From the NCBI RefSeq assembly GCF_030160075.1, contig NZ_BSNQ01000003.1, positions 1 to 64,000 on the forward strand: a stretch of DNA of 64,000 bases, written 5' to 3'. Positions 30,491 through 52,738 of this stretch are shown here, piece by piece. Position numbers and translations under genes: made by a program. Position 1 is the stretch's first letter, and every line of letters starts with the position of its first letter. The notes under the pieces are model-generated. The model saw nothing but the letters and a program-made list of their open reading frames with translations. It was not told where the DNA came from and searched no databases. The DNA comes from Dyella lipolytica. GTDB taxonomy: Bacteria; Pseudomonadota; Gammaproteobacteria; Xanthomonadales; Rhodanobacteraceae.

Positions 30491-30629
30491 GGTGTTACTC
30501 CAGCAGTGGGCCTTTTCAGGTGGCCCGGGGGTTGGGACCTCCACGTATCCCCAGCTTCGACCGCAATGCCCATGGTTAGGAGGACATCGCAGCACCCCGA
30601 AGACGGTGCCGATACGTGTGTGGCATTGG

Positions 30630-30658
30630 TTGGGCTTGTACCGCAGGGCGGTTACAAT
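30630..30658 (+). promoter_or_regulatory. Candidate map promoter
   Basis: -35 TTGGGC (30630-30635), 17-base spacer, -10 TACAAT (30653-30658), about 135 bases before the map ATG. It lies inside the 304-base divergent gap between rpsB and map. Confidence 0.55.
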
Positions 30659-45836: not shown

Positions 45837-48077
45837 TTAGGCGGTGGTTTCGATCCGCTCCACGCGACGCAGACCGCGAGGCAACAAACCACCACGCGTA
45901 GCACGGGTGCCGCCGTATTCGACCAGATCAGACCACTTCAGCGTCAGCTTGCGCTGCCCGGCGAACAGGGTGACTTCGCCCTTGCCCTCGGTGACGACGG
46001 CAACACCGGCCACACGTTCGTCGCCGCTGCTCAGCTTTGCCTTCGGAATTTCGATCAGCTTGTTGCCCTTGCCTTTGTCGAGCTCGGGCAATTCGGCCAC
46101 CGAGAACATCAGCAGATGGCCTTCGGTGGTGACGACCACGATGCGGTCGCGTGCCGGATCGGCGCTGACTTGCGGTGCCAGCACACGCGAGTCGTCGCTC
46201 AGGCTGATGATCTGCTTGCCGGCTTTGTTGCGTCCGGTGAGCGCCTCGAAGCGAGTGACGAAGCCGTAGCCGAAATCGGTGGCCAGCACCAGACGCGTGT
46301 CGTTGTCGCCCGCGGTAATGGCGTCGAAATGCGCACCGGCCGGCAGCGTGAAGCGACCGGTCAACGGCTCACCGTTGCCGCGCGCCGAGGGCAGGGTATG
46401 CGCCGGTGTGGAATAGCTGCGGCCCGTGGAGTCGATCACCGCAATTTGCTGTGTGGTGCGCGTTTTCACCACGGCAAGCAGACTGTCGCCTTCACGGTAT
46501 GAGAGACCTTCCGCGTCGATATCGTGCCCCTTGGCGGCGCGGATCCAACCTTTCTGGCTCAATACCGCGGTGACCGGCTCGCTAACGACCAGCGCGCTTT
46601 CGTCCAGCGCTTGCGCGGCTTCGCGCTGCACCAGCGGTGAGCGGCGGTCGTCGCCGTATTTGGCGGCGTCGGCGCGCAGCTCTTCCTTGATCAGGCCTTT
46701 GAGTTTGGTCGGCGATTTCAGCAGTACGTTGATCTTTGCGCGTTCTTCCTCGAGCTGGTCACGCTCGGCGTTGATCTTCATTTCCTCGAGGCGGGCCAGT
46801 TGGCGCAGCTTGGTTTCGAGGATGTAGTCGGTTTGTTCTTCGCTAAGCTTGAAGCGCGCCATCAGCACAGGCTTGGGCTCGTCCTCGGTGCGGACGATGC
46901 GGATCACCTCGTCGAGATTGAGGTAGGCGATACGCAAGCCTTCCAGCAAGTGCAGCCGGCGTTCTACCTTGGCGAGGCGGTGATTGAGTCGGCGCGTCAC
47001 CGTGTCGATGCGGAAGCCCAGCCACTCGGTGAGGATGCGCTTGAGATTCTTCACCTGCGGCCGGCCATCCAGGCCGATCATGTTGAGATTGACGCGGAAG
47101 CTCTTTTCCAGATCCGTGGTGGCGAACAAGTGCTGCATCATCTCGTCCGCATCGACGCGGTTCGAGCGCGGCACGATCACCAGGCGGATCGGGTTTTCGT
47201 GATCGGATTCGTCGCGCAGGTCTTCGATCATCGGCAATTTCTTCGCGCGCATTTGTGCGGCGATTTGCTCGAGGATCTTCGACGGGCTGACCTGGTGCGG
47301 CAGCGCGGTGATGACGATATTGCTGTCTTCGCGCTGGTAGATAGCGCGTGCGCGGATGGAACCGACGCCGTTCTCGTACATGGCGCGCAGTTCGCTACGC
47401 GGCGTGATGATTTCTGCCTCGGTCGGATAGTCCGGGCCGCGCACGTGTTCGCAAAGATCGGCGAGGGTGGCGTCCGGATCTTCCAGCAGCCGGATGCAGG
47501 CACTGACGATCTCGCGCAGGTTGTGCGGCGGGATATCGGTGGCCATGCCTACCGCGATGCCCATCGAGCCGTTGAGCAGCACGTGCGGCACGCGCGAAGG
47601 CAGCCAGCTGGGTTCTTCCAGCGTGCCGTCGAAGTTCGGCACCCAGTCCGCCGTGCCCTGGCCCAGCTCGCCCAGCAGCACATCGGCGATCGGGTTGAGC
47701 TTGGACTCGGTGTAGCGCATCGCCGCGAAGCTCTTCGGGTCGTCCGGCGAACCGAAGTTGCCCTGGCCGTCGATCAGCGGATAACGGTACGAGAACGGCT
47801 GCGCCATCAGCACCATCGCCTCGTAACAGGCGCTGTCGCCGTGAGGATGGAATTTACCGATCACGTCGCCGACGGTGCGGGCGGACTTTTTCGGCTTGGC
47901 GCTGGCGGCCAGGCCCAGCTCGCTCATCGCGTAGATGATGCGTCGCTGCACCGGCTTCAGGCCGTCACCCACGAAGGGCAGGGCGCGGTCCAGTACCACG
48001 TACATCGAATAGTCGAGATACGCCCGCTCGGCGTATTCCTTGAGCGGGATTTGTTCGTAGTTGGCTTGCAGATTCAT
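45837..48077 (-). CDS. parC: DNA topoisomerase IV subunit A
   Basis: A 746-residue type IIA topoisomerase subunit that decatenates daughter chromosomes. The active-site Tyr is Y122 in AAMRYTESK. The quinolone-determining stretch [15 protein letters not shown] has Ser82 and Glu86, the sensitive-type residues at the E. coli Ser80 and Glu84 positions. The C-terminal beta-pinwheel (about 500-740) is present. The partner gene parE is not in the window. Confidence 0.98.
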
Positions 48078-48192
48078 GGGGATGTCGTTCTTGGGGCGCG
48101 AGAGGGCGCCATAGCAGAGGGATGGTGCCAGATGCCGAGCGCCTTAGGCTAGAATGCCCGCGGCGCAAGCATTCTTAAGCGAGTGGGAACCC

Positions 48193-48654
48193 ATGCAATT
48201 TCAACGCAAAGTCGCAGTTGCGATGGCTTGCCTTCTGATTGGCGGGTGCGCGCTAGTCGCGGGCAGACATCCCATTCGCGGTTATTCGGATAAGAATCAC
48301 CCGTCATCGGATACCGCCATTGTCGCTTGCGCTGAACAAGCCGATTACATCTGCGGCATCACCGGTGTCGACGACACGAGCACCTGGACCCGATACGACG
48401 GTGGCAAGACCCCATGGGTGCGCGTGCTGCCTGGCAATCGGGTGGTCAAGCTCACGCTGTCGAACTCGCACATCATCAATCGCCCGTGGGTGAAAATCGA
48501 TGGTGTGCAGGCTGGGCATGTCTATCGCGTCGATGTCGCCTTCAATGGCACGGCGCTGACGGCCATGTATACGGATCTCGGCAAGATGGATTCGTATACG
48601 ATCCACATCAAGCGTTTGCCGCTGTCGCCCAAACCGGTTACCGCGCACTTCTGA
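48193..48654 (+). CDS. Small lipoprotein, unknown function
   Basis: A 153-residue protein with a lipoprotein signal: MQFQRKVAVAMACLLIGGC, lipobox IGGC with Cys19. The mature part contains two Cys (in VACAEQADYICG) and a beta-rich C-terminal half. No known domain. The ATG at 48193 follows GAGTGGGA. Converges with the TraB/GumN gene. Confidence 0.85.
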   Translation: MQFQRKVAVAMACLLIGGCALVAGRHPIRGYSDKNHPSSDTAIVACAEQADYICGITGVDDTSTWTRYDGGKTPWVRVLPGNRVVKLTLSNSHIINRPWVKIDGVQAGHVYRVDVAFNGTALTAMYTDLGKMDSYTIHIKRLPLSPKPVTAHF

Positions 48655-48664
48655 CGGTGGCGGA

Positions 48665-49540
48665 TCAATCCTGTTGCACGGTGATGCCTAGTTTGGCCAG
48701 CTGCGCCTGCACGCTGTCGGGGCCGGCGAGATGCGCCGCACCGACGGCAACGAACACCGTGACGCCGGGTTGTTTCAGCATGTCCTTGATCTTGCCGGCC
48801 CAGTTGGCGTTCCGCTGGACAATCAGCTCCTGGTAAAGCGCGGGCTCGCGTGTTTTCAGTTCATCGTTTTCGAGCTTGGCAATGGCCGCGACATTGCCCT
48901 GCTTCCAGGCATCGATCAGTGACAGCAATTCGGCGGTGTCCTTGTCTACATCGCGCAGCGTGTCGCGTAGGAAGGCAAGTTGAATAGGCGAAGGCAGATC
49001 GGCGAGAAATTGGATCTGCTGTTCCGCAGTTTCGAGCCCACGCACGGGCTTCCCCGCGTTGGTCATCTGCGTTTTCAGCTGTTTGTCTACACCTTCGGCA
49101 GGATCGAGGCCGGCTTTCAACAATGGCGCGACAGACAGCGTAAGGGCGGCCAGCCACGGCTTCATCGGTTGCAGTGTCGCAGCGCCGCCTGGTAATCCGG
49201 CCAGTTGTGCCGCCTTGGTCAAGGCTGCGTTATCGCCTTCGCTCAGTTGCGTGGAAAGCGGATGTTCTGTGTCGAGTCCGTAACGCAGCACTAGCGGAGT
49301 CACGCTGGCCTGGTCATCGTCCGTAAGCTCGATATAGAGCGCCTGGCTTTGCGCAAGCGCCTGCTTCAGCGCAGGGAAACGCCAGTCAGTGTCGTTCGGC
49401 AGCAGATGCACGGTGCCGAACAGATAGACCGTGCTGCTGTTGCTTTGTACCTGCCATAGAGCGGGATGTGCGAAGGCGTTGTCGCACAGCAGAAAAAGCA
49501 GCGATAACAGGAATACGGCAAAGCGTCGTTGTTTATGCAT
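48665..49540 (-). CDS. TraB/GumN family protein
   Basis: A 291-residue protein with a signal peptide (MHKQRRFAVFLLSLLFLLCDNAFA). The family hallmarks are VYLFGTVHLLPND near the N-terminus, containing the G-x-x-H motif, and FVAVGAAHLAGPDSV near the C-terminus; the family is proposed to be a metal-dependent peptidase/hydrolase, but the activity is poorly defined. It is the last gene of the crcB unit, 6 bases after cfa. Confidence 0.92.
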   Translation of the reverse strand: MHKQRRFAVFLLSLLFLLCDNAFAHPALWQVQSNSSTVYLFGTVHLLPNDTDWRFPALKQALAQSQALYIELTDDDQASVTPLVLRYGLDTEHPLSTQLSEGDNAALTKAAQLAGLPGGAATLQPMKPWLAALTLSVAPLLKAGLDPAEGVDKQLKTQMTNAGKPVRGLETAEQQIQFLADLPSPIQLAFLRDTLRDVDKDTAELLSLIDAWKQGNVAAIAKLENDELKTREPALYQELIVQRNANWAGKIKDMLKQPGVTVFVAVGAAHLAGPDSVQAQLAKLGITVQQD

Positions 49541-49546
49541 GATGGC

Positions 49547-50665
49547 TCAGCGAGGAACGCGATAGCCGCCGGCCACGCCGTGCGGACTGAGAGTGATTTG
49601 CCAGAGCTGATCGCGCCGGCTGCGGAAGACGGCGGCGGACACCGCCAGATAGAAACGCCACATGCGGTGGAAACGTTCGTCGTAGCGCTCGGAAAGCGTC
49701 GGCCACGCCGCTTCGAAATTCGCACGCCACGCGGTCAAGGTGCGATCGTAGTCGGCGCCGAAATTGTGCCAGTCCTCGACCACGAACAAGCCTTCCAGCG
49801 TCGCCGCCACTTGACTGGCTGCAGGAATCATCGAGTTCGGAAAGATGTACTTCTCGATCCACGGATCGGGACGCCCAGGCGCGTGATTGGTGCCAATACT
49901 GTGCTGCAGAAACAATCCATCGTCTTTCAGGCAGCGGCGTGCGACTTCAAAATATTCCCGGTAATTTTTTCCGCCGACATGCTCGAACATGCCGATCGAC
50001 ATGATGGCGTCGAACGGCTCGTCGAGTTCTCGGTAGTCCTGCAACCGGATCTCGATCGGCAAACCCTTGCACAGTTCGCGTGCCAGTGCGGCCTGTTCGT
50101 GCGAGACGGTGATGCCGACGCCGCTCGCGCCATAACGTTCCGCCGCGAACTTCAACGCTTCGCCCCAGCCGCAGCCGATGTCGAGCACGCGCATGCCGGG
50201 TTTCAGCTGCAACTTGCGGCAGATCAGGTCGAGCTTCGCCTCCTGTGCATCGTCAAGGTTGGTTGCCTGCGCCCAGTAGCCGCAGGAATACACCATGTAT
50301 TTGCCCAGCATGGCCTTGAACAGATCATTGCCCAGGTCGTAGTGCACCTTGCCGATCTCGAAAGCGTGCTCGCCGCGCTGCATGTTGAAGAAGCGCGCCT
50401 TGAGATGCGCGATCAGCGTGTCCAACGTCTTGAGGTGATCATCCAAATGGCTGCGAAGGACTCGTGTGAAGAAGCCGGCGAGATCATCGGCATCCCACCA
50501 GCCATCCATATACGCCTCGCCCAGTCCAAGCGAGCCGTGCGCGAAAACGCGCGAATAGAGTTGCTCGTCGTGAACACGAATATCCGTGGCATCCGAACCG
50601 TCGATATGCACGCCAGCAGTTTTCAGCAATTCGGCAGCGCGCTGCTGCAATGAATCCTGACTCAT
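49547..50665 (-). CDS. cfa: Cyclopropane-fatty-acyl-phospholipid synthase
   Basis: A 372-residue SAM-dependent enzyme that adds a methylene to unsaturated phospholipid acyl chains. The SAM motif is VLDIGCGWGEALKFAAERYG; other family segments are HYDLGNDLFKAML, YMVYSCGYW, SIGMFEHVGGKNY, and FLQHSIGTN. Start at the ATG at 50665 with AAGGATTGAG upstream. It follows the DUF190 gene by only 5 bases, placing it in the fluoride-riboswitch unit. Confidence 0.96.
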   Translation of the reverse strand: MSQDSLQQRAAELLKTAGVHIDGSDATDIRVHDEQLYSRVFAHGSLGLGEAYMDGWWDADDLAGFFTRVLRSHLDDHLKTLDTLIAHLKARFFNMQRGEHAFEIGKVHYDLGNDLFKAMLGKYMVYSCGYWAQATNLDDAQEAKLDLICRKLQLKPGMRVLDIGCGWGEALKFAAERYGASGVGITVSHEQAALARELCKGLPIEIRLQDYRELDEPFDAIMSIGMFEHVGGKNYREYFEVARRCLKDDGLFLQHSIGTNHAPGRPDPWIEKYIFPNSMIPAASQVAATLEGLFVVEDWHNFGADYDRTLTAWRANFEAAWPTLSERYDERFHRMWRFYLAVSAAVFRSRRDQLWQITLSPHGVAGGYRVPR

Positions 50666-50670
50666 CCGTC

Positions 50671-51024
50671 TCAATCCTTGCCCAATATGCCGAAGTGTAC
50701 CGGCGACCATGCGTAGACCAGTTCAACACCCGCTTCGCGTACCAATCGCAGCAGGCTCTGCGCGTTGGCGTTGCTCAGCAAAAACTCGATCTTCTGCGGA
50801 AGGTCGTCGGCAAGTTCGAAAAAAGCTTCGTGATGCAGCACACCGTGCCGGCCGAAGCCGGCCGTGGCGCGAAATACCGAGCCGCCGCCTAGCTTGTGCC
50901 GTTTGGCCAGTTCCAGCAGCCATTCCGAAACCAGCAGACCGTCGTGCCGGGCGTGCACATGCGTGTAGAAGCGCAGGAAGATGCCGTTGGTCGCGTTGTT
51001 GTCGAACGGGGTTTCGTTGCTCAT
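50671..51024 (-). CDS. DUF190 family protein
   Basis: A 117-residue PII-like fold protein: LRFYTHVHARHDGLLVSEWL, AKRHKLGGGSVFRATAGFGR and HGVLHH match DUF190. The family is frequently next to crcB and is inferred to act in the same response. Start at ATG 51024, 18 bases after crcB. Confidence 0.92.
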   Translation of the reverse strand: MSNETPFDNNATNGIFLRFYTHVHARHDGLLVSEWLLELAKRHKLGGGSVFRATAGFGRHGVLHHEAFFELADDLPQKIEFLLSNANAQSLLRLVREAGVELVYAWSPVHFGILGKD

Positions 51025-51042
51025 GACGATGCCGACTCCGGT

Positions 51043-51429
51043 TCAGTGGCGCAGCAGGCCGCGTGTCAGGAAGATACCGAGAATAGTCATGGCGAGACTG
51101 CCGAAAAGATGGACAGCCACATGTGTGCCGAACCACAGATATTGTCCGCGCAAAAGCAACGTATCAGCCTCGGCGGAGAAGGTCGAAAAGGTGGTCAGCC
51201 CCCCGAGAAAGCCGGTCATGATGAAAAGTCGCATCTCCGGCGGAAGCGCCTGGAAGTGTTCGAAGACACCCATCATGCAACCCATCACCAGGCCGCCGCT
51301 GAGATTCGCTGCAAGCGTGCCCATGGGCAGGGTTGGAAAGATCGGGTTGAGCATCACGCCGAGTATCCAGCGCAACCAGCACCCCAAGGCGCCACCCAGA
51401 CCGACTGCGAAGAATCCGCTCATGCTCAC
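51043..51429 (-). CDS. crcB: Fluoride ion channel CrcB/Fluc
   Basis: A 126-128-residue, four-helix fluoride channel. GGALGCWLRWIL (conserved Gly and Arg) in helix 1, PMGTLAANLSGGLVMGCMMG in helix 2 with the conserved Asn, and TGFLGGLTTFSTFSAEA in helix 3 (the Phe/Thr/Ser fluoride-track region) are intact. The GTG at 51429 is 10 bases after AGGAG; the ATG at 51423 is 16, so the GTG is slightly favoured. Preceded by a fluoride riboswitch. Confidence 0.96.
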   Translation of the reverse strand: MSMSGFFAVGLGGALGCWLRWILGVMLNPIFPTLPMGTLAANLSGGLVMGCMMGVFEHFQALPPEMRLFIMTGFLGGLTTFSTFSAEADTLLLRGQYLWFGTHVAVHLFGSLAMTILGIFLTRGLLRH

Positions 51430-51478
51430 GTTGTGTTGTCTCCTGATTGCCATGGACCTATTCCACGGCAACAGGCAC

Positions 51479-51509
51479 GCCTGCGCCGCCGGAATCCGGT
51501 GGTGCAGGC
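51479..51509 (-). promoter_or_regulatory. Candidate expression-platform hairpin of the fluoride riboswitch
   Basis: Minus-strand GCCTGC (51509-51504) can pair with GCAGGC (51484-51479), with CCGG-ATT-CCGG inside. The GCC at 51509-51507 is also needed for the aptamer pseudoknot, so the two structures are exclusive. No T-run follows, so termination is not obvious. Confidence 0.5.
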
Positions 51510-51565
51510 ATCATCAACCTTTCGGTGGTTCGTTCCCGTAAGGAACGGGAGGCATGCCATCTCCC
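51503..51565 (-). promoter_or_regulatory. Fluoride riboswitch (crcB motif)
   Basis: On the minus strand: P1 GGGAG (51565-51561) with CTCCC (51551-51547) enclosing AUGGCAUGC; an extra hairpin GUUCC-UUACG-GGAAC (51546-51532); ACC-GAAA-GGU; then UGAUGAUGCC. The loop GGCAU can pair with AUGCC (51511-51507) as the pseudoknot. The GAUGG, the GGU-UGAUGAUGCC tail and the position upstream of crcB match the known crcB RNA. Confidence 0.9.
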
Positions 51566-51603
51566 ACATGACCGGCATGCTAGCCGATGCTGGTAGGGTC
51601 AGG

Positions 51604-52707
51604 TCAAATGCTGGTGCCGGAGGTGAGTTCGGGCATGGCTGCGATGGCGCGTGCAACATCTTCAGGCGCGGTGCCATATGCTGCAATGACATGACGGCCG
51701 GGGCCGTAGGGTCCCCACTCGGCGGAGCTGGTGGCGGTGAAGATACCCATCGTCGGTACGTCGGATGCGCACGCCAAATGCATGATCCCGCAATCGGCGC
51801 TGATATAGACGGCCAAACTCGAGAGCACGCCAGCGAGTTTTCTTAAATCGCTGGAATAGTAGGCGGGATAGTTCGAGCTGAGCATCGATTCGCCGGATGC
51901 AGGAATGATCTCCACGATCCGATGTTCCGGATGCAGCGTCTCCAGCACCTGGATGAAGCGCGTCCACCACGCTTCGCCGAGCAGCTTGGGTCCGGTGGCA
52001 TTGGCAAAGATGCCAATGACGCCGCGACCTTGGGAGGTTATGCCTTGCGCAGCGAGCGAGCGGGTCAGCGCGGCGCGGCCTTGTTCGCGTTCACCGGCGT
52101 TGAGGCGGATATCAGGCACTGGATAATCGGCGCCGGTATCGCGCCCCATCGCGCTGCGCAGCAGGTAGACCGGGCGGCGCCCCTTGCTCTCCAGATTGTC
52201 CGGCAACGGCACCGCGTGGGTGATTTCGCCGTGCTTTTTCGGGCTGCTGAAACCCAGCGTGTAAGTCGAGTTCGACAGCAACATCAATAGGCGGCCGGTC
52301 TGGGACAACGGATCGGCATCGATCGCCAGGTCGTAGCGAATTTTGCGCATGCGCCGCAAGGTGCCGAAGAATTGCAGCGGATGTCCCACGCCATGCGCCG
52401 GCAGACGGAAGATGCGCTGCACGCTGAAGAATCGGCCGTACACATCGTTTGCGATCGGGCTGCGCGTGAGGATGTCGATTTCCGCAGCTGGATAGATCTT
52501 TTCCAGTTCTGACAGCAAGGGCGTCAGCAGCAGCGTGTTGCCGAGGCTGTGGCTGATATGGCAAACCAGGATGCGATAAATGCCCTTGGCCGGAAGCGGC
52601 TCCGAGCTCGGCTGACCGTGGCTACCGAAAACCATATGCATCAGCCGGCGCGCCACGCGGCGGCGCAGGTCGTTGATGGGATCGTAGTAACGCGTGTTCT
52701 TGAGCAC
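51604..52707 (-). CDS. Glycosyltransferase family 9 (heptosyltransferase-like)
   Basis: A protein of about 367 residues. The GT9/ADP-heptose:LPS heptosyltransferase pattern starts at GIYRILVCHISHSLGNTLLL and ends with the sugar-nucleotide site around YISADCGIMHLACASDVPTMGIF. A basic N-terminal stretch precedes the domain. No in-frame ATG fits well; the GTG at 52707 is chosen, which leaves a 31-base gap after the upstream gene (a TTG at 52779 is possible). Transfers a sugar, perhaps in LPS core; acceptor unknown. Confidence 0.88.
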   Translation of the reverse strand: MLKNTRYYDPINDLRRRVARRLMHMVFGSHGQPSSEPLPAKGIYRILVCHISHSLGNTLLLTPLLSELEKIYPAAEIDILTRSPIANDVYGRFFSVQRIFRLPAHGVGHPLQFFGTLRRMRKIRYDLAIDADPLSQTGRLLMLLSNSTYTLGFSSPKKHGEITHAVPLPDNLESKGRRPVYLLRSAMGRDTGADYPVPDIRLNAGEREQGRAALTRSLAAQGITSQGRGVIGIFANATGPKLLGEAWWTRFIQVLETLHPEHRIVEIIPASGESMLSSNYPAYYSSDLRKLAGVLSSLAVYISADCGIMHLACASDVPTMGIFTATSSAEWGPYGPGRHVIAAYGTAPEDVARAIAAMPELTSGTSI

Positions 52708-52738
52708 AGGTGGCTTCGCGACAAATGGGCGACGGCGA

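What the first reader, a model, noticed from the sequence alone, without database searches (positions are those of the whole stretch)
48665..51565. A fluoride riboswitch appears to control a cyclopropane fatty-acid synthase as well as the fluoride channel
The aptamer at 51503-51565 heads crcB, DUF190, cfa and a TraB/GumN gene, all on the minus strand with gaps of 18, 5 and 6 bases and no terminator visible between them. crcB-DUF190 under a fluoride riboswitch is known; inclusion of cfa suggests membrane lipid remodelling as part of the fluoride or acid response (HF enters cells at low pH, and cyclopropane lipids protect against acid). The link is inference from spacing.
Basis: partly seen in the sequence, partly recalled or inferred. 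Interest (0 to 1): 0.8.

Follow-up and report, generated by a model that had tools for sequence, protein, structure and literature searches.

The report
Fluoride riboswitch operon with lipid enzyme
In this soil bacterium the RNA switch that senses toxic fluoride heads a gene row holding both the fluoride exporter and an enzyme that changes membrane lipids, and in some relatives the lipid enzyme has a fluoride switch of its own, which suggests that the membrane is part of the defence against fluoride.

Summary
A fluoride aptamer (RF01734, 37.9 bits, cut-off 34; window 51498-51573, minus strand) heads crcB, DUF190, cfa and a TraB/GumN gene with gaps of 18, 5 and 6 bases; a consensus scan found no terminator or promoter between them. 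The organism is a Dyella. Comparative evidence goes beyond spacing. (1) Of 80 named loci chosen by Cfa similarity, crcB lies upstream of cfa in 38 of 40 that I grouped (after seeing the table) as Rhodanobacteraceae-like and in 0 of 40 others; 32 of the first 40 carry the aptamer. (2) In five genomes a fluoride aptamer stands directly before a Cfa orthologue with no crcB between; in a sixth it heads a distant CMAS paralogue near crcB. So cfa very probably belongs to the fluoride regulon of this clade. That cyclopropane lipids lower HF entry is plausible but unshown. Against: 18 of 60 family crcB-cfa loci lack a detected aptamer yet keep the pair, outside the family 1 of 100 aptamer-bearing genomes shows the adjacency, and the window's platform looks translational, so its reach to cfa must be by coupling or polarity. 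TraB/GumN is an inconstant member. Searches of open-access text found no paper linking fluoride riboswitches to cfa.

The parts
51577..51582 (-). putative -10 element (TAGCAT) inside the block GCATCGGCTAGCATG, just upstream of the aptamer
   Evidence: the block or a near copy in 11 of 12 leader rows printed (window, L110, L124, L126, L134, L135, L138, L168, L169, L120, L132; not L167), while the bases around it vary (L168 and L169 repeat L124 and L134, so 9 of 10 different leaders); promoter function is inference
51498..51573 (-). fluoride riboswitch aptamer (RF01734)
   Evidence: 37.9 bits against gathering score 34; own model R1 66.6 bits, the window being one of its 40 training rows
51477..51511 (-). 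predicted platform hairpin AUGCCUGC / GCAGGCGU, which uses the 3' strand of the aptamer and so excludes the ligand-bound fold
   Evidence: platform fold z -4.9; 95.8% of cells paired in 33 chosen leaders against 38-48% when slid, but little covariation (11 operon loci with an aptamer were left out of this alignment)
51442..51475 (-). predicted hairpin CCUG...CAGG that hides the crcB Shine-Dalgarno AGGAG (51440-51444)
   Evidence: CCUG and CAGG visible in some but not all Dyella leaders, and the fold of L110's platform is no better than shuffles (z -0.2)
51043..51429 (-). crcB (Fluc fluoride channel), GTG start
   Evidence: PF02537 98.7 bits; NF010792 150 bits over cut-off 125
50671..51024 (-). 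DUF190 protein
   Evidence: PF02641 59.1 bits
49547..50665 (-). cfa, cyclopropane-fatty-acyl-phospholipid synthase
   Evidence: NF008686/PRK11705 592 bits; best solved relative 6bqc E 1.6e-130; the next CMAS-like protein of the genome is only 37% identical
48665..49540 (-). TraB/PrgY/GumN family gene, 6 nt after cfa; inconstant member
   Evidence: PF01963 248 bits; within 350 nt of cfa in 12 of 40 named loci, 38 of which hold at least 1 kb downstream
51604..52716 (-). upstream glycosyltransferase-9-like gene (start uncertain), same strand, ends 30 nt before the aptamer; not counted as part of the unit
   Evidence: PF01075; within 500 nt upstream of crcB in 4 of 40 named loci

Best explanation
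This is a fluoride-riboswitch operon, crcB-DUF190-cfa (plus TraB/GumN in most Dyella), in which the genome's only close Cfa is part of the fluoride response. Likely working: a promoter just upstream starts the transcript at the aptamer. Without fluoride the 3' strand of the aptamer (AUGCCUGC) pairs with GCAGGCGU and a second hairpin hides the crcB ribosome-binding site. Mg-fluoride binding keeps AUGCC in the aptamer pseudoknot and frees the site. CrcB is then translated, and DUF190 and cfa follow by translational coupling (DUF190 and cfa overlap as ATGA in 10 of 12 Dyella rows; 5 nt apart here) and by relief of polarity. CrcB lets fluoride out, while Cfa cyclopropanates unsaturated phospholipids; the changed membrane would slow re-entry of HF (and H+), the leak that limits a passive exporter. 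Shown here: aptamer, gene row, conserved linkage, and aptamers placed directly before cfa in relatives. Inferred: cotranscription, fluoride induction of cfa, the switch mechanism, and the benefit from cyclopropane lipids. Regulon membership is put at about 0.85, the HF-permeability role at about 0.5.
For: Aptamer over cut-off, gene identities, no site found by the scan between the genes. crcB upstream of cfa in 38 of 40 Rhodanobacteraceae-like and 0 of 40 other named loci, loci chosen by Cfa alone (grouping drawn after the table was seen); aptamer before crcB in 32 of those 40. Family survey: CMAS downstream of crcB on the same strand within 6 kb for 114 of 150 crcB genes, 109 of 140 crcB-bearing genomes of 147 searched; a lower bound, since only the best 150 CMAS rows were listed. 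The pair is kept better than its neighbours: TraB within 350 nt 12 of 40, GT9 before crcB 4 of 40. Aptamer directly before Cfa without crcB between: L060 (G194), L061 (G295), L063 (G286), L064 (G210), L160 (G146, another family); before a 37%-identical CMAS paralogue in L062 (G300), which has crcB-DUF190-Usp upstream and an enolase-like gene downstream. Tree: L060 and L160 pair at 100/98, and the g80 clade mixes crcB-operon and stand-alone copies, so on the simplest reading separation with an aptamer kept or gained happened at least twice. No rise in synonymous conservation at the 3' end of DUF190 in 12 Dyella rows, so no sign of a conserved inner promoter. Cyclo-17:0 is 'not detected or <1%' in 4 of 6 Dyella strains of one table, as expected if cfa is normally low (PMC12789092, passages). 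HF is the main route of fluoride entry, and genes for cell membrane structure are among those reported as raised by fluoride in other bacteria (PMC11139923, passages).
Against: No expression data. 18 of 60 family crcB-cfa loci gave no aptamer hit with R1 (a 13-bit hit in L088, E 0.09, not counted), among them two Dyella (L084, L139), so the pair does not need the switch; in genus g8 (L086, L089, L092) the pair has no aptamer although two of these three genomes (G074, G100) carry a fluoride aptamer elsewhere. In four loci of the stand-alone arrangement (L065, L066, L067, L197) no aptamer faces cfa; only the divergent strand has one. In G189 (L158) and G203 (L159) cfa lies apart from crcB with no R1 hit. 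36 of the 150 family crcB genes had no listed CMAS downstream, 14 of them with a listed aptamer. Outside the family 1 of 100 aptamer-bearing genomes (1 of 39 and 0 of 61) has an aptamer before a CMAS gene, read from the rows by eye. The platform is of translational type, so its reach to cfa is uncertain. Dyella fatty acids are mostly branched, which leaves little substrate for Cfa. No source seen here measures HF permeability of cyclopropane-rich membranes.
Confidence: 0.68

Rival explanations
1. Hitchhiking: the riboswitch serves crcB alone. cfa is a long-standing neighbour, placed between crcB and parC early in the family, with its own weak or growth-phase promoter; the short gaps reflect a compact genome.
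For: 18 of 60 family loci keep crcB-cfa without a detected aptamer; DUF190-cfa gaps outside Dyella are often 25-130 nt and in a few loci 1.2 kb or more, room for a promoter; the platform acts at the crcB start.
Against: Aptamers stand directly before cfa away from crcB in five genomes and before a CMAS paralogue in a sixth; other neighbours are kept far less well; no promoter-like site or synonymous conservation before cfa in Dyella.
Confidence: 0.2
2. Target replacement: Cfa is itself a fluoride-sensitive enzyme (its active site holds a bicarbonate ion, recalled) and is overproduced like enolase and pyrophosphatase in fluoride operons, to keep normal lipid modification going rather than to bring a new defence.
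For: Stand-alone cfa in L060 lies within about 7 kb of MFS, pyrophosphatase and enolase genes, and the CMAS paralogue in L062 near Usp and an enolase-like gene; fluoride-inhibited enzymes are made in such operons (PMC5533749, passages). The residues that I recall as holding bicarbonate (C128, E228, H255, I257, Y306 here) are invariant in the six aligned proteins.
Against: No report of Cfa inhibition by fluoride was met in the searches made; Cfa is not essential in known cases (recalled), so compensation would buy little.
Confidence: 0.12
3. General acid or envelope stress: cfa protects against the proton load that comes with HF, and the fluoride aptamer is a convenient sensor of acid plus fluoride; fluoride permeability as such does not matter.
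For: [quoted passage not shown] coli (stated and cited in PMC7083825, passages); fluoride stress and acidification are linked (PMC11139923, passages).
Against: It does not by itself explain why a fluoride aptamer rather than an acid-responsive promoter is found before cfa in several places.
Confidence: 0.3

Closest known systems
Fluoride riboswitch (crcB motif, RF01734) controlling crcB or CLC-F
   Same: Same aptamer, over the Rfam cut-off, in the leader of crcB
   Different: The gene row goes on into cfa; the window's leader lacks the terminator that overlaps the motif 'in many cases' (PMC2864571, passages)
Enterobacter cloacae FRM GI3 fluoride operon (ppaC, uspA, eno, gpmA, crcB, orf5249)
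   Same: Multi-gene riboswitch operon with a fluoride channel plus accessory genes; shown to be fluoride induced (PMC5533749, passages)
   Different: Accessory genes there are fluoride-inhibited enzymes and Usp; here a membrane-lipid enzyme. The L060 and L062 islands hold both kinds
Cfa of the PRK11705 family (solved structure 6bqc, which I recall as the E. coli enzyme)
   Same: Full-length homology, E 1.6e-130, conserved motifs
   Different: E. coli cfa is controlled by sigma factors and small RNA (recalled), not by a fluoride switch
crcB-DUF190 gene pairs
   Same: Gene order crcB-DUF190 under the aptamer
   Different: cfa follows as the next gene of the row in most family loci examined

Membership tests
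Fluoride riboswitch RF01734 | Covariance-model score over Rfam's gathering score | tested here: met
   37.9 bits against 34
Fluoride riboswitch RF01734 | Conserved aptamer core shared with other members | tested here: met
   Core columns invariant or nearly so in A3, 40 rows
Fluoride riboswitch RF01734 | Mutually exclusive platform that links aptamer folding to gene expression | tested here: inconclusive
   Hairpin with the aptamer's 3' strand predicted (z -4.9) and kept in 95.8% of cells of 33 chosen leaders (1 of 500 shuffles as high), but the covariation score is within shuffle range (59 of 500)
Fluoride riboswitch RF01734 | Binds fluoride and changes expression | not testable with these tools
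   Needs in-line probing or a reporter
Cfa (PRK11705 equivalog) | Score over the curated cut-off, full length | tested here: met
   592 bits against 400, residues 2-372
Cfa (PRK11705 equivalog) | Catalytic and bicarbonate-site residues (identity recalled) | tested here: met
   C128, E228, H255, I257, Y306 align with 6bqc and are invariant in A1, 6 rows
Operon under the fluoride riboswitch | Codirectional genes, short gaps, no terminator or promoter between | tested here: met
   Gaps 18/5/6; none found by the consensus scan
Operon under the fluoride riboswitch | One transcript, induced by fluoride | not testable with these tools
   No RNA data
Fluoride regulon (cfa as member) | Association kept across lineages, also when the gene moves | tested here: met
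   38 of 40 against 0 of 40; five stand-alone aptamer-cfa units; exceptions are listed under evidence against

The most novel reading that the evidence does not exclude
Membrane cyclopropanation is a dedicated fluoride defence: an inorganic-ion riboswitch controls lipid chemistry, on its own or with the exporter, to lower HF permeability. The trait arose in the Rhodanobacteraceae, reached another family with a riboswitch-cfa unit, and was recruited separately with a second CMAS paralogue in a fluoride-resistance island.
Probability: 0.45. Interest if true: 0.78.

Novelty: new variant of a known kind. Interest (0 to 1): 0.62.

Why it matters
The fluoride-riboswitch genes met in the passages read here export the ion, replace poisoned enzymes, or serve ion transport, DNA repair, formate hydrogen lyase and general stress. 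HF diffusion through the bilayer is the main way in, yet no lipid-modifying gene was met among the riboswitch targets in those passages. A riboswitch-controlled Cfa would make the bilayer a regulated part of fluoride resistance. The idea is directly testable and bears on strains built to degrade or make organofluorine compounds.

Tried and rejected
Considered and dropped: that the aptamer is a chance hit (over cut-off, in the leader of crcB, the only one at E <= 0.001 in 4.05 Mb). That cfa adjacency is common to fluoride aptamers in general (1 of 100 aptamer-bearing genomes outside the family; CMAS lists cut at the best 150 rows in each call; compared by eye, not by script). That TraB/GumN is a fixed member (12 of 40). 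That the platform is proven by covariation (it is not). A hidden conserved promoter in DUF190 (no rise in synonymous identity). First gene calls in high-GC loci picked antisense frames, so I re-called by GC at codon position 3; these calls are rough. A first aptamer search by regular expression missed some copies and gave some that R1 did not confirm (for example L205, L245), so counts rest on model R1.

Choices that bear on counts. R1 was trained on 40 rows: the window, 34 of the 53 oriented aptamers, and 5 from L061, L062, L064 and L066; several loci searched hold training rows and match by construction. R1 was run on 93 of the sources then held (L068, L069, L072-L079 were left out) and on the 80 named loci. 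In the counts I left out the weak R1 hits in L229 (19.1 bits, E 0.0017, about 4.3 kb upstream of cfa), L195 (17.9 bits, minus strand) and L221 (13.9 bits), and in the 60-locus count the 13.3-bit hit in L088. The platform alignment A4 holds the window, 31 of the 42 operon loci with an R1 hit, and L142; 11 were left out (L085, L100, L101, L103, L111, L113, L114, L117, L125, L131, L133), several of which have another kind of platform, so 95.8% is not a family-wide figure. The trees hold 39 of the 60 operon loci and 12 of the 40 other loci, and 20 and 8 of them.

Literature: searches 'fluoride riboswitch'+'cyclopropane', 'fluoride'+'crcB'+'cyclopropane', two of 'fluoride riboswitch'/'operon'/'DUF190', two of 'fluoride'/'cyclopropane fatty acid'/'riboswitch' (487 papers, 20 listed), 'Acidithiobacillus'+'fluoride'+'cyclopropane' and 'fluoride'+'bacteri'+'cyclopropane fatty acid synthase' showed no paper that links the two by title, start of abstract or the passages opened (PMC12421806; PMC10100675, main text has no 'cfa' or 'cyclopropane'; PMC2864571, no 'cyclopropane'; PMC7541441, no 'cyclopropane'). 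Most listed papers were not opened (for example PMC10402746 and PMC6486687). The library holds only open-licence papers, so the 2012 fluoride riboswitch paper and its supplement were not seen; cfa could be in such a supplement.
Full report
WHAT IS THERE. Rfam finds one fluoride aptamer in the window at the gathering threshold, at 51498-51573 on the minus strand, 37.9 bits against 34, and one in the 4.05 Mb genome at E <= 0.001. Behind it lie crcB (51043-51429), DUF190 (50671-51024), cfa (49547-50665) and a TraB/PrgY/GumN gene (48665-49540), identified by Pfam and, for crcB and cfa, NCBIfam; gaps are 18, 5 and 6 bases. The consensus scan gave no promoter-like site in 48000-52000 and, on the operon strand, a terminator-like site only beyond TraB, at 48313-48298. 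The Cfa matches NF008686/PRK11705 with 592 bits (cut-off 400) over residues 2-372, and the solved enzyme 6bqc at E 1.6e-130. The next CMAS-like proteins of the genome are 37% and 32% identical, so this is the only close Cfa of the genome. Dyella monticola, D. nitratireducens and D. acidisoli contigs in the Cfa search have the same lengths as contigs of same-genus genomes of the family survey, so the organism is a Dyella (inference).

IS THE LINKAGE MORE THAN CHANCE. Family survey, 147 genomes: 140 have crcB (150 genes, all listed). For 114 of the 150 genes (109 of the 140 genomes) a CMAS gene lies downstream on the same strand within 6 kb; 36 have none listed. This is a lower bound because only the best 150 CMAS rows were listed; G294, counted as lacking it, has Cfa downstream of crcB in L198, the same contig by length. 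A second set, the best 80 of 582 loci found by Cfa similarity alone, divides sharply. Of 40 loci that I grouped as Rhodanobacteraceae-like (L167-L205 and L208; Dyella, Rhodanobacter, Frateuria, Luteibacter, Fulvimonas, Oleiagrimonas, Dokdonella, Rudaea and MAGs) 38 have crcB upstream, 33 DUF190 and 32 the aptamer; the two misses are L197, and L199 where only 1.1 kb upstream is held. Of the other 40 (Stenotrophomonas, Pseudoxanthomonas, Lysobacter and others) none has crcB within 4 kb upstream; one, L229, has a weak R1 hit (19.1 bits) about 4.3 kb upstream, not counted. The flanking genes are kept much less well: TraB within 350 nt of cfa in 12 of 40, GT9 before crcB in 4 of 40. All 60 family loci fetched for having the pair (60 of the 114 pairs) are codirectional crcB-(DUF190)-cfa, in a few with 1.2-2.6 kb between (chosen for the pair, so no test of it).

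CFA WITH ITS OWN FLUORIDE SWITCH. In five genomes a fluoride aptamer precedes a Cfa orthologue with no crcB between: L060 (G194), L061 (G295), L063 (G286), L064 (G210) and L160 (G146, which belongs to another family of the order). In four of them the aptamer ends about 100-180 nt before the cfa start; the start in L063 is less sure. In G194 the unit lies within about 7 kb of MFS, pyrophosphatase and enolase genes and other fluoride aptamers, while a second cfa sits in a normal crcB operon, L097. In G300 (L062) an aptamer heads a CMAS paralogue 37% identical to the window's Cfa; upstream are crcB, DUF190, Usp and an unassigned ORF, downstream a gene that starts like enolase (read from its first residues, not scanned). 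The tree puts L060 and L160 together (100/98) and shows crcB-operon and stand-alone copies mixed in genus g80. On the simplest reading the bond between aptamer and cfa survived or arose anew at least twice, with a further separate recruitment of a paralogue. This is the strongest evidence that fluoride control of Cfa is selected for. Counter-cases: in L065, L066, L067 and L197 cfa sits at the same kind of place but only the divergent strand carries an aptamer; in G189 and G203 cfa lies apart from crcB without an R1 hit.

HOW OLD. In genus g2 of the family crcB is followed directly by parC in 2 of the 4 g2 crcB loci fetched (L152, L155; no parC was called in L151 and L154). The five g2 Cfas in the tree fall with Xanthomonadaceae-type Cfas, while the crcB-linked and stand-alone Cfas fall on the other side of a 100/99 split. 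cfa therefore most likely entered between crcB and parC after g2 split off (inference).

HOW IT MAY WORK. The window leader folds better than all of 200 shuffles (z -4.2; platform alone z -4.9). In the predicted fluoride-free state AUGCCUGC, the 3' strand of the aptamer, pairs with GCAGGCGU, and CCUG...CAGG hides the crcB Shine-Dalgarno. Leaders of L138 and L167 also fold well (z -3.5 and -4.0), the shorter platform stretch of L110 does not (z -0.2). The first hairpin is kept in 95.8% of cells over 33 chosen leaders (31 distinct) against 38-48% when slid, but its sequence hardly varies, so covariation gives little support; 11 of 42 operon loci with an aptamer were left out, several with another platform. 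Some show U-runs after the corresponding hairpin (L100, L107), so the platform type varies. If the window's switch acts on translation, cfa is reached by coupling or polarity: in 10 of 12 Dyella rows the DUF190 stop overlaps the cfa start as ATGA; in the window and in L132 there is a short gap. Synonymous identity at the end of DUF190 (0.46-0.59 per 15-codon window) is not above the gene mean of 0.57, so nothing hints at a conserved inner promoter. A GCATCGGCTAGCATG block lies just upstream of the aptamer in 11 of 12 rows printed (two of them repeats) and looks like the -10 of a dedicated promoter (inference).

PHYSIOLOGY. HF is the main route of fluoride entry and CrcB is a passive channel (PMC11139923, passages). 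If cyclopropanation lowers HF and proton permeability, Cfa would complement CrcB by slowing the leak. [quoted passage not shown] coli (PMC7083825, passages). One table of Dyella fatty acids lists cyclo-17:0 as not detected or under 1% in 4 of 6 strains, 0.7% and 3.3% in the others, with branched acids dominant (PMC12789092, passages). That fits a cfa that is off in ordinary medium, but also a cfa of little use.

AGAINST. 18 of 60 family crcB-cfa loci gave no aptamer hit, among them two Dyella (L084, L139). Outside the family 1 of 100 aptamer-bearing genomes shows aptamer-CMAS adjacency (1 of 39, 0 of 61; by eye, lists capped). No expression or lipid data exist here. R1 and Rfam can miss diverged aptamers, and gene calls in loci are by homology and codon-position GC.

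VERDICT. Observation confirmed. Regulon membership of cfa well supported by comparison (about 0.85). Membrane protection against HF plausible and untested (about 0.5). No paper linking the two was found in the searches named under Tried and rejected.

Noticed in passing
window 30531-30640 (-): Rfam t44 RNA (RF00127), 64.6 bits against a gathering score of 44.
   Followed up: no
G300 (L062, L072), G241 (L068, L074), G204 (L069, L163), G194 (L060, L073): Genomes with 8-14 fluoride aptamers, clustered; in L060 enolase, pyrophosphatase, MFS, NADH-dehydrogenase-like and SNF2 helicase genes were named by Pfam, and similar first residues recur in L069 and L072.
   Followed up: partly
L139, L084, L099: Two Dyella and one other family member in which crcB-DUF190-cfa remains but no aptamer is found; in L139 the promoter-like block runs almost straight into crcB, as if the aptamer had been deleted.
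   Followed up: partly
L152, L155 (genus g2): crcB directly followed by parC without cfa (2 of 4 g2 loci fetched); the Cfas of this genus group with Xanthomonadaceae-type Cfas.
   Followed up: partly
   Followed up: no
L121 (G243): Tandem crcB genes before DUF190 and cfa, with one R1 aptamer hit upstream.
   Followed up: no
L061, L064 (genus g80); L063: Divergent pair of fluoride aptamers, one towards NADH-dehydrogenase-like genes (Pfam in L064 only) and one towards cfa; in L063 a divergent pair and a third aptamer before cfa lie about 3.6 kb apart.
   Followed up: partly
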